DNA of 9,823 bases. It comes from CBDUXP01 sp965371225 [NCBI: uncultured bacterium]. Its GTDB lineage: Bacteria > Abyssobacteria > SURF-5 > CBDUXP01. The position numbers and the translations under genes are program-made. Position 1 is the first letter of the stretch. The number at the start of each line of letters is the position of its first letter. Shown here in pieces: positions 2,970 through 9,739 of the stretch. The notes beneath the pieces are model-generated. The model searched no databases. It worked only from the letters and a program-made list of their open reading frames with translations, and had not been told where the DNA came from. The DNA lies in NCBI GenBank assembly GCA_965371225.1, contig CBDUXP010000100.1:1-9823 (forward strand), written 5' to 3'.

Positions 2970-3833
2970 ATGACGGATTCAGACAACGCGAAGTCCTTGC
3001 GAGATTCGACTTTTATCAGAGGATGGCGCAAGGTTCCGCTAGCGGTCCGCGCGGTGATTCTGGGGTTCTTCGTCTCTACGATCGGCGTCGGCGCCTGGGT
3101 GCTGTGCTTGACTGCGATTCCGGCGCCCTGGTCGATCGCGGCAATGGCGGTCCTCTTATGGCTCTACTGGAAGTATTTCAGTGGCAGCTGGTGGCCGGAG
3201 AGCACGAAGGAGGCCAGGCGCGCCGGCTTTCGGGCGACCCGACTTCCGAGTTCGGTCTGGAAGTGGAGCCTGGCCGCCGCGGCTCTGTTTGTCGTCATCT
3301 TTCAATCCTCCCTCGTCGTGACCTTCCGCTTCGTCGAGTTCCCGGCTGAGCTCTTCAAGGAGGAGTACCTAGCCATTGCTGAGGCGCCGCTCTGGATCGC
3401 CTGGTTATTCATCGTCATGGCGTCGTTGGTGGCAGGCATCTGCGAGGAGACCGGGTTTCGCGGCTACATGCAGGCGCCCTTGGAGACACGCTACGGCCCG
3501 GTCATCGCCATCACCATCGTGACCGTCGTGTTTCTAGCGGCGCATCTCCACCAGGCGTGGCTCGGACCGATCATGTTGCCGGCCCTGGCCGCTAGCGTCC
3601 TGCTCGCCGTGCTCGCTTACGCCTCCGGTTCTCTCATCCCGGGCATAATCGGCCACGTTGTAATGGACATTTTCAACTTCTCCTACTGGTGGACCGACGT
3701 GGCCGGCAAGTTCGACAGGCGCCCGATCCTGGAAACCGGCTGGGATGCGCATGCGCTTGGCTGGATCGTGATCCTGGTGACCGCCCTCGCGGCCTACCTG
3801 TGGATCATTCGCAGATTGATCGCGATTCGCTGA
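2970..3833 (+). CDS. CPBP family intramembrane glutamic endopeptidase (CAAX-like protease)
   Basis: This 287-residue polytopic membrane protein belongs to the CPBP/Abi family (related to Rce1), which cleaves substrates within the membrane using a Glu-activated water. The three family motifs are visible: EExxxR at Glu159-Glu160 and Arg164 (CEETGFRGYMQ), FxxxH at Phe188-His192 (VVFLAAHLHQ), and HxxxD at His229-Asp233 (GHVVMDIFNF). Hydrophobic segments lie at about 26-48, 54-68, 97-118, 138-157, 176-194, 198-224 and 262-282. The length is normal for the family. The ATG is supported by GAGGTG 5 bases upstream. It follows Tricorn on the same strand after 164 bases, so co-transcription is possible but unproven. 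Its 3' end faces the convergent membrane-protein gene across a hairpin-containing gap. Substrate unknown; bacterial members include bacteriocin-immunity and prenyl-protein-protease-like proteins, and nothing here decides between them. Confidence 0.93.
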   Translation: MTDSDNAKSLRDSTFIRGWRKVPLAVRAVILGFFVSTIGVGAWVLCLTAIPAPWSIAAMAVLLWLYWKYFSGSWWPESTKEARRAGFRATRLPSSVWKWSLAAAALFVVIFQSSLVVTFRFVEFPAELFKEEYLAIAEAPLWIAWLFIVMASLVAGICEETGFRGYMQAPLETRYGPVIAITIVTVVFLAAHLHQAWLGPIMLPALAASVLLAVLAYASGSLIPGIIGHVVMDIFNFSYWWTDVAGKFDRRPILETGWDAHALGWIVILVTALAAYLWIIRRLIAIR

Positions 3834-5578: not shown

Positions 5579-7105
5579 TTACCGCGTCACGCGGAAGAAC
5601 GCCGCGAACAGGCGCTGGAGGCGGGGCGAGAATCGCGACCGGGTGTACGCGCCCGCGGCGCGCTTGATGGCCTCCGCCTGCGTGGGGTACGGGTGGATGA
5701 CGTTGCCGATGGTGCCCAGCCCGCAGTTCTTCGCCACCATGGCCAGGGTCACTTCGCTGATCATCTCCCCCGCGTGGGGCGCCACGATCGTCGCGCCCAC
5801 AATCCGGTCCGTCCCCTTGCGCACGTGCACCTTCACGAACCCATCGGTCTCCCCGTCCGTCACCGCCCGGTCCACGTCCGCCATGGCCACCGTATAAGTG
5901 TCCACCTCGATCCCCTGCTGCTCCGCCTCGGCGGCGTACAACCCCACGTGCGCCACCTCGGGATCCGTATACGTACACCAGGGCATGATGAGATCGCTCA
6001 ACTTCTTCCGGCCGAAGAACAGCGCGTTCTGCACGACGATCTTCGCCGCCGCATCCGCCGCGTGCGTAAACTTCTGCGCCATGCAGATGTCCCCCGCGGC
6101 ATAGATGCGGCGGTTCGTGGTCCGCAGCCGGTCATCCACCAACACGCCGAGCCGCGCGTCATAAGCCACCCCCACCGCGCTCAGGTTGAGGTCCTCCACG
6201 TTCGGCGCGCGGCCGACCCCCACCAGGATCTCGTCGACCACCACTTTCTCCGTGGTGCCGTTGCGCGCGTAGTGCAGCAGCTTCTGGTCGGCCACGGGTT
6301 CCGCGTTCTGAATCTGGCAATCCACCAGCAACTCGACGCCTTCCCGTTCGAGGGCGCGATACACCACGTCGGCCGCGTCCCGGTCCTCGCGAATCAGAAT
6401 CCGCGGCGCCACCTCGAGCAGGGTGACTTGCGACCCGAGCCGCTGGAACGCTTGCGCCAACTCACACCCGATGGGGCCCGCGCCGATCACCGCCAGCCGC
6501 CGCGGCTGCTCCGTCAGCGTGAACACCGTTTCGTTCGTCAGGTACCCCGTCGCGTCCAAGCCGTCGATGGGCGGGGCGGACGCGCGCGCGCCCGTGGCGA
6601 TCACCGCCTTCTTGAAGCGCAGCCGCGTGCCGTCCACGTCGAGCGTGCTGTTGTCCACGAACCTGCCGTTGCCCAGGTACACGTCCACGCCCAACTCGTG
6701 CTGGTAGCGCCACGCCGAATCGTTCGCGCTGATCGTGGCGCGCACGTCGCGCATGCGCGCCATCATGGCGCCGAAGTCCAGCCGCGTCCCGTCCGACACG
6801 TGCAGCCCGTGCAGCGCGCCGCGGCGCAGTTCGCCCAGCACGCGCGCGGAGCGGATCACGGCCTTCGAGGGCACGCAGCCCACGTTCAGGCAATCGCCGC
6901 CGAGCAGGTGGCGTTCCACCAGCGCCACCTTCGCGCCCAGGCCCGCGGCGATCGCGCTCGTGATCAGGCCCGCGGACCCCGCGCCGATCACCACCAGGTG
7001 GTACCGGCCCGAGGGGACGGGGTTGCGCCAGTCGGCGGGGTGCACGTTGCCGACCAGGGTCGCGTTGTGCTCGTCGGCCGGCGGGACTTGAACCGGGTCG
7101 CTCAC
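5579..7105 (-). CDS. FAD-dependent pyridine nucleotide-disulfide oxidoreductase ('mercuric reductase'-like)
   Basis: This 508-residue flavoprotein belongs to the class I disulfide reductase group (lipoamide dehydrogenase, glutathione reductase, MerA). Domains in order: an N-terminal extension (1-35), FAD-binding VVIGAGSAGLITS (38-50), redox-active pair Cys72-Cys77 (GGDCLNVGCVPSK), NAD(P)-binding VIGAGPIGCELA (206-217), GVGRAPN (296-302), FAD-contacting AAGDI (336-340), and a dimerisation domain ending in the His-Glu pair His471/Glu478 (HPYPTQAEA). It lacks both the N-terminal heavy-metal domain and the C-terminal vicinal Cys pair of true MerA, so mercury reduction is doubtful despite the usual annotation. 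The GTG at 7105 is chosen because GGAAGAGG lies 8 bases upstream and the sequence before it does not look coding. Similar enzymes are adjacent to, or fused with, TVP38 proteins in other bacteria, and a TVP38 gene follows here after 8 bases. The physiological substrate is unknown; a dithiol/NAD(P)H couple is expected. Confidence 0.92.
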   Translation of the reverse strand: MSDPVQVPPADEHNATLVGNVHPADWRNPVPSGRYHLVVIGAGSAGLITSAIAAGLGAKVALVERHLLGGDCLNVGCVPSKAVIRSARVLGELRRGALHGLHVSDGTRLDFGAMMARMRDVRATISANDSAWRYQHELGVDVYLGNGRFVDNSTLDVDGTRLRFKKAVIATGARASAPPIDGLDATGYLTNETVFTLTEQPRRLAVIGAGPIGCELAQAFQRLGSQVTLLEVAPRILIREDRDAADVVYRALEREGVELLVDCQIQNAEPVADQKLLHYARNGTTEKVVVDEILVGVGRAPNVEDLNLSAVGVAYDARLGVLVDDRLRTTNRRIYAAGDICMAQKFTHAADAAAKIVVQNALFFGRKKLSDLIMPWCTYTDPEVAHVGLYAAEAEQQGIEVDTYTVAMADVDRAVTDGETDGFVKVHVRKGTDRIVGATIVAPHAGEMISEVTLAMVAKNCGLGTIGNVIHPYPTQAEAIKRAAGAYTRSRFSPRLQRLFAAFFRVTR

Positions 7106-7197: not shown

Positions 7198-8184
7198 CTA
7201 TTCCTCCCGCGCGTACACCGCGGTGTCGCGATGGAACGCGGCCCACGCGAACCACTTCACCCGGATGGCGGGTACCGAGGTGCCGCCCGCCGTGTGCACC
7301 TGCACGCGCACCCCCGGCGGGTCGTTCGTCACCACCAGGTCCTCGTCGCCCAGGCGACAGTGGAACTCGCGCGGTGCCCGCAGCAGCTCCGCCACGGGGA
7401 ACGCCTTCGCCTTGCCCGCCCACTCGATACCGAGCACGGGGGTGTCCACGGACAGGCGCCGGTCCACATGGCTAACGGGGAACATGAGACCCCGCCGGCC
7501 GCTGTAGGGATCGAGGCCGTAAGAGCGCCGATGGCCGGTCTCGCGACTGAGCACCAGCGTCTCCGGATGGCGGCGCCGCCACTCGCCCCACGTGGTGTCC
7601 GTGAACGGCGCGAGCGGGAGCGTCGTGCCCCGGTGCGGGCCGCTTATCGCTTCGTGCGACAGTTGCGACCAGAGGCTGCGGCCCTGCCGGTCGTAGAACA
7701 GGACGGTGCTTTCGTACAGCAACCCGGAAACCCCGAACGTGAGTCGCTCGCCGTTCACTTGCGGGTCGTACACGACGGCCCCATCGTTGAGCGGTCAGAA
7801 GGTGACCAGGTACGGCTTCCCGCCGACCGTGTCGTTCACCGCTTCGTGCCACAGCAGGATCGCGGCCGGATACGCCTTCGCCACGCCGGCGTGCACCACG
7901 CCCACCACCCGGTCGCCGTCTCGCAGCCAGGTCGCGTCCGCCGCCGACTCGAACGCCGGGTCCGTCAGCGACGGGATGCCGTCCATGGCCGCGCCGCGCA
8001 GGATTTGTTCGCGCGGCACATTCACCGGCGCATCGCCGCGCAGCCCGAACGGATCGAAGCCCTGCGCCCGCACCGAACCCAGCCGCAGCAGCACCACCAC
8101 GCCCGCACACACCGCGGCGATGCTCAACGCCCGCACGGCCCTGGCGGCGCGTCTACTGCTCGCTGCATTCACGTCCATGTGCAT
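7198..8184 (-). CDS. Exported DUF3179 protein with an in-frame TGA at the conserved cysteine (candidate selenoprotein, or pseudogene)
   Basis: The frame covers 328 codons and has one internal stop, TGA at 7795-7797 (codon 130). Before it are a twin-Arg-flanked hydrophobic segment (18-40, possible cleavage after SVRA) and the DUF3179 N-half: DGIPSLTDPAFESAADATWL (68-87), VVGVVHAGVAKAYPAAILLW (93-112), HEAVNDTVGGKPYLVTF (113-129). After it come PLNDGAVVYDPQVNG, LTFGVSGLLY (148-157), LWSQL (171-175), ETLVLSRETG (208-217), GIEWAGKAKAFPV (252-264) and a typical C-terminus (VKWFAWAAFHRDTAVY). Homologues read V-T-[FY]-C-P-L at the TGA, so the stop replaces the family's conserved Cys with no frameshift. 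GGAG at 8189-8192 supports ATG 8184 (or 8178). Without recoding, the product would be a 129-residue fragment. DUF3179 has no established activity; the protein is expected outside the cytoplasmic membrane. It lies 92 bases upstream of the oxidoreductase gene on the same strand. Confidence 0.82.
7763..7797 (-). promoter_or_regulatory. Candidate SECIS-like hairpin just downstream of the in-frame TGA
   Basis: After the TGA (7795-7797) the minus-strand transcript can form GTCG (7773-7776), loop TGTA (7769-7772), CGAC (7765-7768). Beyond a 2-base CC bulge (7777-7778), GG (7779-7780) pairs with CC (7763-7764). The loop starts 22 bases after the TGA and has G at its second position. As I recall them, the usual criteria for bacterial SECIS elements are a short bulged stem, a loop about 16-37 bases after UGA, and a G in the first two loop bases. 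This hairpin meets them. The stem is only 6 bp and such hairpins arise often by chance in GC-rich DNA, so this is supportive only. Confidence 0.35.
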
Positions 8185-8240: not shown

Positions 8241-8268
8241 CCTAACTTGTGCCAGGACAACCCTTAGG
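8241..8268. promoter_or_regulatory. Inverted repeat in the divergent intergenic region, candidate operator
   Basis: CCTAA (8241-8245) and TTGT (8247-8250) are mirrored by ACAA (8257-8260) and TTAGG (8264-8268) around the centre GCCAGG, with a slightly uneven gap in the arms. On the minus strand it overlaps a weak promoter-like pair, TTGTCC (8255-8260) and TATGCC (8233-8238), 16 bases apart, which would start transcription about 40 bases before the DUF3179 ATG. A DNA-binding regulator could therefore control the minus-strand unit here. No regulator gene is present in the window. Confidence 0.3.
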
Positions 8269-8390
8269 CGACTGTAAGAAACCTCACAGGAGGGGGGTGG
8301 TCAGCGCTTGCACTGCCACCGGATGGCGCGGTTTTCCTGCAGCGTTCCTCGCCCCCGTAGATCATTCGGGCCCAAGTGGCGACGAAAGAA

Positions 8391-8419
8391 CTGACACCTT
8401 TGATTTTGCATACTACTAT
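8391..8419 (+). promoter_or_regulatory. Sigma70-like promoter placing the transcript start at or near the next ATG
   Basis: CTGACA (8391-8396) and TACTAT (8414-8419) each match 5 of 6 consensus bases and are separated by the optimal 17 bases, in a locally AT-rich patch that stands out in this GC-rich window. The ATG of the next gene is only 6 bases after the -10 hexamer, and no Shine-Dalgarno is seen before it, so a leaderless or nearly leaderless mRNA is implied. Confidence 0.55.
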
Positions 8420-8425
8420 TTGCTC

Positions 8426-9739
8426 ATGACAGAAGCGCGCCCGGACCGTCGGCGTCTGAAATGGGTGGGAGGCGCGCTCTTGCTCTTGCTCCTCGCCTAC
8501 TTCTGGGCTACAGCCGCGCCCACTCCGCGTCGGCCCCAGAATGCCCCGACCGGGGAAGAAACCTTCGCGGAAGAGCTTCTGTACGTCAACCTGACAGGGG
8601 GGAAGGTCCACATCATTGGATCGCCCTGGTGGTATGTGCCCGTGCGGATCAATCTCACGCGGGGAAGCATCACGCCGCTGGACGTTATTGCGAAACAGGG
8701 GGCGGCCGTTTTTGGGTTTCTGCCCGAGGCACGGCTACTGCTGACGGCCCAGAATGCGCGTGACGAAGTACCGCCTGTGGCCGAAAGTCGATTCAGTGTG
8801 TGGCATCTCTCGACGCCAACCGCGCCCGAACTGGAGTTCAGTACCGCTTTTGAGCTAGACCACATACTCGGGGCTTGGCGTGACCCGGAAGAAGGCACTT
8901 TTCTGGTGTGGGGGCGACGGACCCCAATCGACTTGATGGCAAGCAATCCCGACAAAGTAGCGCCCGGGAGCGTGTTAATCATGCTGAGCCCCACCGGAGC
9001 AATCCAGTGGGAGCGGCAGCTTCCCACAGGCGTACACGTCTATGAGGCCCGCTCTGCGCACGGCGCAGATGTACTTTGGCTCGCCGGATGGGATTGCCGT
9101 TCTGGTGGGAACTGCAACCCGGAGAGTGTCGCATCAGATCCCACGCTTTTTGAGTATGGCCTCACCGATGGTGCCCTGAGCACGCTCCTACCGGCTGGTG
9201 ACTGGGAAACGTTCAACAATGTGGTATTCCACGTTCGCCTACACCCCAAACGCCTAAGCGCCATCGTCCTGACGGCGGTGAACGGGCGGCGCGCCGTACG
9301 AGTGCTCACTCAGGGTGTGGACGATGGAATGGGGCCTTGGAAATTGCCAGACTTGTACGATGCCTATTGGCTTTCCGAAGGGCGCGTGGCTCTGCTGACT
9401 CACCGCACTCCTGGATTTGGGTTGTTGGGGGACTGGTATTCCACCGCCATATGGGATGTGGCGGATGGACCTCGTCGCTGGCGCCTGACGTGGCGCCGCG
9501 TGGGTGCAATTGACCTTCCATGGGTGCATTTCGTTTCGTCCGACGGAAATTTGATCGAAGTAAAAAAGGGGGAAAGCGCGTATGACCTGTTCGCGCATGA
9601 GCTGGCCGGGATGACTGCTCGTGCCGCGCGCGAGTGGCACCTGGACGCCCGTGCAGCCGTGAAAGCCTTCGCGCCAGAAGAGCACGAGGAGATGTACGTC
9701 AGCGACTGGGGGGCAGTGGGGCTTGGTGGATGGTGGTAG
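8426..9739 (+). CDS. Unrecognised membrane-anchored extracytoplasmic protein, propeller-like
   Basis: I do not recognise this 437-residue protein. It starts with a basic stretch (RPDRRRLK) and one hydrophobic segment (about 12-31), as expected for an uncleaved signal anchor or signal peptide, followed by a Pro-rich spacer (32-42) and a soluble domain. That domain is rich in Trp and in short alternating beta-like strands, for example SRFSVWHLS (121-129), GTFLVWGRR (157-165), GSVLIMLSPTGAIQWERQLP (181-200) and VRVLTQGVDD (291-300). This is reminiscent of a WD/PQQ-type beta-propeller, though no clear repeat signature is present. Cys224 and Cys230 (WDCRSGGNC) could form a disulfide outside the cytoplasm. 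The ATG at 8426 is preferred over the in-frame GTG at 8249 because the intervening 59 codons do not look coding and the promoter lies inside them. Third positions are less GC-biased than in neighbouring genes, which hints at different ancestry. Confidence 0.8.
   Translation: MTEARPDRRRLKWVGGALLLLLLAYFWATAAPTPRRPQNAPTGEETFAEELLYVNLTGGKVHIIGSPWWYVPVRINLTRGSITPLDVIAKQGAAVFGFLPEARLLLTAQNARDEVPPVAESRFSVWHLSTPTAPELEFSTAFELDHILGAWRDPEEGTFLVWGRRTPIDLMASNPDKVAPGSVLIMLSPTGAIQWERQLPTGVHVYEARSAHGADVLWLAGWDCRSGGNCNPESVASDPTLFEYGLTDGALSTLLPAGDWETFNNVVFHVRLHPKRLSAIVLTAVNGRRAVRVLTQGVDDGMGPWKLPDLYDAYWLSEGRVALLTHRTPGFGLLGDWYSTAIWDVADGPRRWRLTWRRVGAIDLPWVHFVSSDGNLIEVKKGESAYDLFAHELAGMTARAAREWHLDARAAVKAFAPEEHEEMYVSDWGAVGLGGWW

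What the first reader, a model, noticed from the sequence alone, without database searches (positions are those of the whole stretch)
7198..8184. In-frame TGA at the conserved cysteine of a DUF3179 protein: candidate new selenoprotein
The DUF3179 frame is uninterrupted on both sides of a single TGA (7795-7797). The residues around it, V-T-F-TGA-P-L, align with the family's V-T-[FY]-C-P-L motif, so exactly the conserved Cys codon is replaced. TGA/Cys pairing with conserved flanks is the classical sign of a selenocysteine codon. The downstream 198 codons, including the family's C-terminal signature, show no other stop or frameshift, which argues against long decay. TGA ends the Tricorn and CPBP genes here, so general recoding is unlikely. 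I know of no established DUF3179 selenoprotein, but I cannot search.
Basis: partly seen in the sequence, partly recalled or inferred. Interest (0 to 1): 0.8.

Follow-up and report, generated by a model that had tools for sequence, protein, structure and literature searches.

The report
Selenocysteine DUF3179 gene, probably planctomycete
The gene carries an internal UGA that most likely codes for selenocysteine rather than stop, which makes it a new member of a bacterial selenoprotein family that has already been described, whose job in the cell is still unknown.

Summary
On the minus strand, 8184-7198 is one DUF3179 frame (PF11376, E 3.7e-77) with a single TGA at 7797-7795, at the family's conserved Cys. 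The selenoprotein reading is supported: of 112 distinct homologous loci covering the codon, 41 have TGA there. TGA homologues carry a hairpin about 20 nt downstream: at least 6 of 7 pairs in one of two registers in 38 of 42 TGA rows, 3 of 59 Cys rows. The window has 6 of 7 pairs with one C·A mismatch, so its own element is weak, but a model built without it finds it (31.5 bits). SelB is in 34 of 36 genomes with a confirmed TGA copy, 13 of 24 others. No genome is held for the window; its Tricorn gene points to Planctomycetota. Against: the nearest planctomycete DUF3179 copies have Cys.

'New' is not supported: two reviews list DUF3179 as a selenoprotein family. Possibly new are a Rieske-like predicted fold without the cluster motif, and a link to arsenic genes (ArsS, ArsM-like) seen in 2 of 11 TGA regions examined.

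The parts
7198..8184 (-). DUF3179 gene, ATG start (GTG 8208 also possible), stop at 7200-7198
   Evidence: Pfam PF11376 E 3.7e-77 across the TGA; translation
7795..7797 (-). in-frame TGA, predicted selenocysteine codon (U138 counted from the GTG)
   Evidence: 41 of 112 homologous loci have TGA at this codon, 59 Cys, 12 other
7763..7781 (-). candidate bSECIS hairpin: 7-position stem with one C·A mismatch, loop CGUGU, 20 nt after the UGA
   Evidence: 6 of 7 pairs; model R1, built without the window, 31.5 bits, E 7.4e-7 over 7797-7756; core energy only -5.0 kcal/mol
8077..8136 (-). hydrophobic N-terminal stretch, probable membrane anchor or signal (no predictor run)
   Evidence: inference from the sequence; part of a low-confidence helix in the model
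7534..7983 (-). Sec/Cys-bearing domain, predicted Rieske-like fold without the cluster motif
   Evidence: model pLDDT 93.4; best structural matches Rieske ferredoxins, Z up to 8.7; C-x-H...C-x2-H absent
5579..7105 (-). MerA-like FAD-containing pyridine nucleotide-disulfide oxidoreductase, next gene downstream
   Evidence: NF004991 E 2.6e-242; 401 bits against a cut-off of 454 for mercury(II) reductase TIGR02053
3939..5570 (-). VTT membrane domain fused to DUF547, third gene of the run
   Evidence: PF09335 and PF04784; start chosen by eye from an ORF

Best explanation
The gene encodes a probably membrane-anchored, extracytoplasmic DUF3179 selenoprotein. In translation, SelB with Sec-tRNA reads the UGA at 7797-7795 as selenocysteine, helped by a stem-loop about 20 nt downstream. 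Sec takes the place of the family's conserved Cys, in a domain predicted to have a Rieske-like fold but without the iron-sulfur cluster motif, and with an almost invariant His (H121) 17 residues earlier. The selenol most likely works as a redox-active group or a soft metal(loid) ligand, together with a MerA-like flavoprotein and a VTT-DUF547 membrane protein encoded next to it on the same strand. Shown here: the frame, the Cys/TGA pairing across homologues, the conserved hairpin in homologues, the neighbouring genes. Inferred: Sec insertion in this organism, location, chemistry, operon.
For: TGA at the same codon in 41 of 112 distinct loci, from phyla of records named Deltaproteobacteria, Acidobacteria and Planctomycetota. 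Five of the six best-scoring relatives are TGA forms. Hairpin with at least 6 of 7 pairs in either of two registers in 38 of 42 TGA rows (window included) against 3 of 59 Cys rows (my count; registers chosen after seeing the TGA rows). In the 23 TGA rows of A1, 31 cells change on both sides and still pair, shuffled mean 10.2 (rows chosen for at least 6 pairs, window excluded). R1 finds the window site at 31.5 bits; next best in the window 11.8, best of 41 non-TGA loci 19.1 (filters off for the window, default for the loci). The sequence-only model gives the window 17.0 and the best Cys locus 23.1. SelB over cut-off in 34 of 36 genomes with a confirmed TGA copy and 13 of 24 others, p 3e-4. Planctomycete locus L141 has a TGA DUF3179 gene (35% identity) with a 7 of 7 hairpin beside the same two partner genes.
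Against: No genome is held, so the organism's own sel genes are untested. The ten best planctomycete DUF3179 matches have no stop and carry Cys, and 7 of 9 such genomes tested lack SelB; most planctomycete TGA copies fall in another part of the tree. The tree does not nest the window among TGA forms: its 28-row set has 13 TGA and 14 Cys rows and is unresolved inside. The window's hairpin is weak: one C·A mismatch, -5.0 kcal/mol for the core and -6.9 in a 34-nt context, short of the published -7.5; an alternative fold at the same place reaches -7.6. Synonymous recoding reaches 6 pairs in 12.5% of trials, a best-register score gives p 0.39, and free folding shows no excess stability. +3 is Asn, unlike the other 38 TGA rows. 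One base separates TGA from TGC and no reads were available.
Confidence: 0.82

Rival explanations
1. A Cys form in which the codon became TGA by sequencing or assembly error or a recent nonsense mutation; the organism does not insert Sec here.
For: No reads and no genome; one base from TGC; weak hairpin; the ten best planctomycete matches are Cys forms and the Cys form L102 scores 225 bits, close to the best TGA forms at 238 and 233.
Against: The change would have to hit exactly the codon that is TGA in 41 of 112 homologous loci, and it would not explain 6 of 7 hairpin pairs with the CGUGU loop of planctomycete TGA forms, a level reached by 2 of 59 Cys rows in that register. All 11 tested planctomycete genomes with Tricorn identity of 50% or more have SelB.
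Confidence: 0.12
2. A decaying selenoprotein gene: formerly Sec-encoding, now losing its bSECIS, which would explain the mismatch.
For: One mismatch in the stem and Asn at +3.
Against: No other stop in 336 codons and unchanged codon-position composition; 8 of the 23 other TGA rows in the same register also have one unpaired position.
Confidence: 0.03
3. General recoding of TGA, or two separate proteins split at the stop.
For: A GTG start occurs shortly after the TGA, at 7773.
Against: Tricorn and CPBP end in TGA; the predicted domain runs across the site; no row of the 112 has TAA or TAG at this codon.
Confidence: 0.02

Closest known systems
DUF3179 domain-containing selenoprotein (PF11376; UxxC/T), listed in PMC9312934 and PMC13188914
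   Same: Same Pfam family; Sec at the conserved Cys that is followed by P-L; hairpin downstream of the UGA
   Different: Window has UPLN (Asn at +3) instead of UxxC/T; hairpin has a mismatch; probable planctomycete source
Rieske [2Fe-2S] ferredoxins (e.g. 5bok, 2qpz)
   Same: Predicted fold of the Sec domain, 5bok Z 8.7, rmsd 3.2, 93 of 102 residues
   Different: No C-x-H...C-x2-H motif; Foldseek E only 0.2; sequence searches of the PDB find nothing
Arsenosugar-type cluster (ArsS TIGR04167, ArsM-like methyltransferase)
   Same: VTT-DUF547 genes adjoin ArsS in 6 of 7 planctomycete loci and a MerA-like gene in 7 of 7; in L141 a TGA DUF3179 gene lies between ArsS and VTT-DUF547
   Different: No ArsS or ArsM among the six window proteins scanned; DUF3179 is found in only 1 of those 7 loci; gene order differs, MerA-like before VTT-DUF547 in the window

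Membership tests
DUF3179 (PF11376) | profile match over curated cut-off | tested here: met
   260.1 bits against 27, residues 76-297
Bacterial selenoprotein gene | in-frame TGA aligned with conserved Cys of homologues | tested here: met
   59 of 112 loci have Cys there
Bacterial selenoprotein gene | TGA-containing homologues in other organisms | tested here: met
   41 of 112 loci, plus L141 and L142
Bacterial selenoprotein gene | bSECIS model quoted in PMC13188914: loop 3-9 nt, stem 4-16 bp, G in the first two loop positions, spacing 16-37 nt, energy at most -7.5 | tested here: inconclusive
   loop 5, stem 7 with one mismatch, G second, spacing 20; energy -5.0 core, -6.9 in context, alternative fold -7.6
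Bacterial selenoprotein gene | Sec insertion genes in the same genome | not testable with these tools
   no genome held. Proxy: 11 of 11 tested planctomycete genomes with Tricorn identity of 50% or more have SelB; G607 and G619 also reach 50% and were not tested
Bacterial selenoprotein gene | selenium shown in the protein | not testable with these tools
   needs an experiment
DUF3179 selenoprotein as tabulated in the reviews | motif UxxC/T | tested here: not met
   window UPLN; in 39 TGA rows, window included, +3 is C 28, T 5, A 5, N 1, so six rows depart from the tabulated motif
Rieske protein | C-x-H...C-x2-H cluster motif (recalled) | tested here: not met
   no match; besides U138 the only Cys are residues 34 and 284
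Rieske fold | three-dimensional fold | tested here: inconclusive
   VIA's top rows are Rieske proteins, Z up to 8.7; Foldseek has no match at E 0.001 or below
Arsenosugar-type cluster | ArsS and ArsM genes present | tested here: not met
   none among the six window proteins scanned with Pfam; they could lie elsewhere in the genome

The most novel reading that the evidence does not exclude
DUF3179 selenoproteins are extracytoplasmic proteins with a cluster-less Rieske-type fold, and in some bacteria the Sec form serves an organoarsenic (ArsS/ArsM-type) pathway together with a MerA-like reductase and a VTT-DUF547 membrane protein, as in L141 and, in part, in the window.
Probability: 0.2. Interest if true: 0.6.

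Novelty: new member of a known kind. Interest (0 to 1): 0.35.

Why it matters
By the standard code the gene reads as two fragments and could be missed or called a pseudogene. The survey confirms TGA at the codon in DUF3179 genes of 22 planctomycete genomes, while each review table gives one example accession. It also gives leads on function for a family without one: a Rieske-like fold without cluster ligands, and in some genomes neighbours that include ArsS- and ArsM-like genes. Both leads can be tested in laboratory strains.

Tried and rejected
Plus-strand reading of the coordinates gave an unrelated frame. Free folding of the downstream region and a loose hairpin search showed nothing special for the window. 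The idea that Sec replaces the box-2 Cys of a Rieske cluster (H121, 16 residues, U138) was dropped: the aligned ranges (model 32-132 against 5bok 3-97) put U138 well before the first cluster loop by interpolation; the loop positions are recalled and no residue-level alignment was available. SelB in the first 28 genomes alone did not discriminate (12 of 13 against 11 of 15, p 0.33). Sequence searches of the PDB found nothing. NCBIfam has no match to the window DUF3179 at E 0.001. The link to MerA-like and VTT-DUF547 genes is not general: of 11 TGA regions examined (L123-L129, L133, L134, L141, L142) two have it, L125 and L141; of three Cys regions (L130-L132), L130 and L132 have VTT-DUF547 about 6 kb away and L132 also MerA-like. 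Literature: 'DUF3179' occurs in 3 papers of the held library, two of them the reviews, the third (PMC9230427) seen only in the listing; a search for at least 3 of arsenosugar biosynthesis, DUF547, TVP38, mercuric reductase and radical SAM found 0 papers. Rows dropped: L013, L037 and L038 as short before the trees, L021, L039, L040 and L041 before the first tree; the second tree used 43 chosen rows. Taxonomy rests on the Tricorn protein searched in two phyla only, 119 genomes each.

Full report
The observation. The gene lies on the minus strand. Reading TGA as U gives 336 residues from GTG 8208 (or ATG 8184) to the stop at 7200-7198, with one TGA at 7797-7795 (U138), in the context VTF-U-PLND. 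Pfam places DUF3179 over residues 76-297, both sides of the TGA, E 3.7e-77. GC by codon position is nearly the same before and after the TGA and close to that of neighbouring genes.

Homologues. From genome searches (fetched loci are a capped part of all matches) 112 distinct loci align over the codon: TGC 43, TGT 16, TGA 41, other 12. Five of the six best-scoring are TGA forms: L044 238 bits (phylum of the record named Acidobacteria bacterium), L022 233 (phylum of the record named Deltaproteobacteria bacterium), L023, L024, L012; the Cys form L102 (Planctomycetota) scores 225. The ten best planctomycete matches have no stop and carry Cys. In the 106-row tree the window sits in an open set of 12 rows, 9 of them TGA, SH-aLRT 86, while most planctomycete TGA copies lie in another part. 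In the more careful 43-row tree it lies in a set of 28 rows (support 99/94) with 13 TGA rows, itself included, and 14 Cys rows, unresolved inside. The tree allows, but does not prove, descent from a Sec form.

Hairpin. TGA homologues share a stem-loop in one of two registers, which I chose after looking at them. In register 20/5 (20 nt from the UGA to a 5-nt loop) at least 6 of 7 pairs form in 24 of 42 TGA rows (window included), 2 of 59 Cys rows and 0 of 12 others; in register 21/6 in 14 of 42, 1 of 59 and 0 of 12. No TGA row is in both, so 38 of 42 against 3 of 59 by my count. In the 23 TGA rows of A1 (window left out; rows chosen for at least 6 pairs, so percentage paired is inflated) six of seven pairs change on both sides, 31 cells against a shuffled mean of 10.2. 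The covariance model R1 from these rows scores the window site 31.5 bits, E 7.4e-7; the next window match is 11.8, and the best of 41 non-TGA loci, taken from the 71 non-TGA rows, is 19.1 (filters off for the window, default for the loci). The sequence-only model R2 scores the window 17.0 and the best Cys locus 23.1; scores of the two models are not strictly comparable. Against this, the window stem has a C·A mismatch, energy -5.0 kcal/mol for the core and -6.9 in context, with an alternative fold at -7.6; synonymous recoding gives 6 pairs in 12.5% of trials; a best-register score gives p 0.39. The window's own bSECIS is plausible but weak; the case rests mainly on the homologues.

Organism and machinery. 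No genome is held for the window. Its Tricorn protein matches 13 Planctomycetota genomes at 50-58% identity (119 genomes), against at most 39% in the rows shown for the phylum of G003 (119 genomes, list cut); other phyla were not searched with it. SelB (TIGR00475 over cut-off) is in 12 of 13 TGA genomes and 11 of 15 others; it is in 22 of 23 genomes with a confirmed TGA copy, 2 of 9 with Cys copies and 4 of 5 without a checked copy. Leaving out those five, 34 of 36 against 13 of 24, p 3e-4. The genomes are related and some others may hold unseen TGA copies (G004 has a weak TGA match, not checked), so p is only indicative. Of the 13 genomes with Tricorn identity of 50% or more, 11 were tested and all 11 have SelB. 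Full sets of Sec insertion genes in Gemmata obscuriglobus and other planctomycetes are reported in PMC4807772 (listing and passages).

Context. Downstream on the same strand are a MerA-like flavoprotein (NF004991; under the MerA cut-off) and a VTT-DUF547 fusion. A search of 392 planctomycete genomes with VTT-DUF547 gave 15 matches in 13 genomes; six loci were fetched, and L141 makes seven. In 7 of 7 a MerA-like gene is next to it, in 6 of 7 an ArsS gene lies on the other side (ArsS named), and in 1 of 7, L141, DUF3179 is present. In L141 the run is ArsM-like methyltransferase, PHO4, DsbH/thioredoxin, ArsS, DUF3179 with TGA and a 7 of 7 hairpin, VTT-DUF547, MerA-like; the window has MerA-like before VTT-DUF547. 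Of 11 TGA regions examined, only L125 (MerA-like 62%, ArsS) and L141 show the link. The window itself holds no ArsS or ArsM among the six proteins scanned, so the arsenic link is a lead, not a membership.

Fold. A model of the whole protein has pLDDT 82, of the domain 76-225 alone 93.4. VIA-align's top rows are Rieske ferredoxins, 5bok Z 8.7, rmsd 3.2, 93 of 102 residues; by title nearly all rows shown are Rieske-domain proteins. Foldseek gives 5bok E 0.2, probability 0.98, so this is suggestive only. The cluster motif is absent. H121 is kept in 106 of 110 rows (35 of 39 TGA, 59 of 59 Cys, 12 of 12 other), while +3 varies.

Known or new. PMC9312934 (listing and one table passage) and PMC13188914 (listing, passages and section 9) list DUF3179 (PF11376, UxxC/T) among predicted selenoproteins; the second gives it the same reference number as the Olavius algarvensis Delta 1 endosymbiont. 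I recall this as Zhang and Gladyshev 2007; the DOI I tried is not held. PMC12013277 was seen in listing and passages. The finding is a new member of a known kind, with an Asn at +3 outside the tabulated motif.

Noticed in passing
L091-L093, L096-L099: Planctomycete DUF3179 copies with His, Ala, Gly or Ser at the Sec/Cys column; genomes G732 and G734 hold such a copy and a TGA copy.
   Followed up: partly
L002:1082-1987; L070: A second in-frame TGA in the DUF3179 gene. In L002 it aligns with a column that is not Cys in the relatives shown; in L070 it was not looked at. A second Sec, an error or decay.
   Followed up: no
L141:2571-12963: Planctomycete run of ArsM-like, PHO4, DsbH/thioredoxin, ArsS, TGA DUF3179, VTT-DUF547 and MerA-like genes on one strand.
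   Followed up: yes
window 8249-9739 (+): ORF of 496 aa (a likely ATG start near 8427) with no Pfam or NCBIfam match, divergent from the DUF3179 gene.
   Followed up: no
window 2970-3833 (+): CPBP/Rce1-like gene with lower GC at codon positions 1 and 3 than the four other genes measured, possibly acquired.
   Followed up: no
matches: Many further DUF3179 matches in the phylum of G003 (Acidobacteria) and in Planctomycetota show one TGA, sometimes several copies per genome; most were not checked at the codon.
   Followed up: partly
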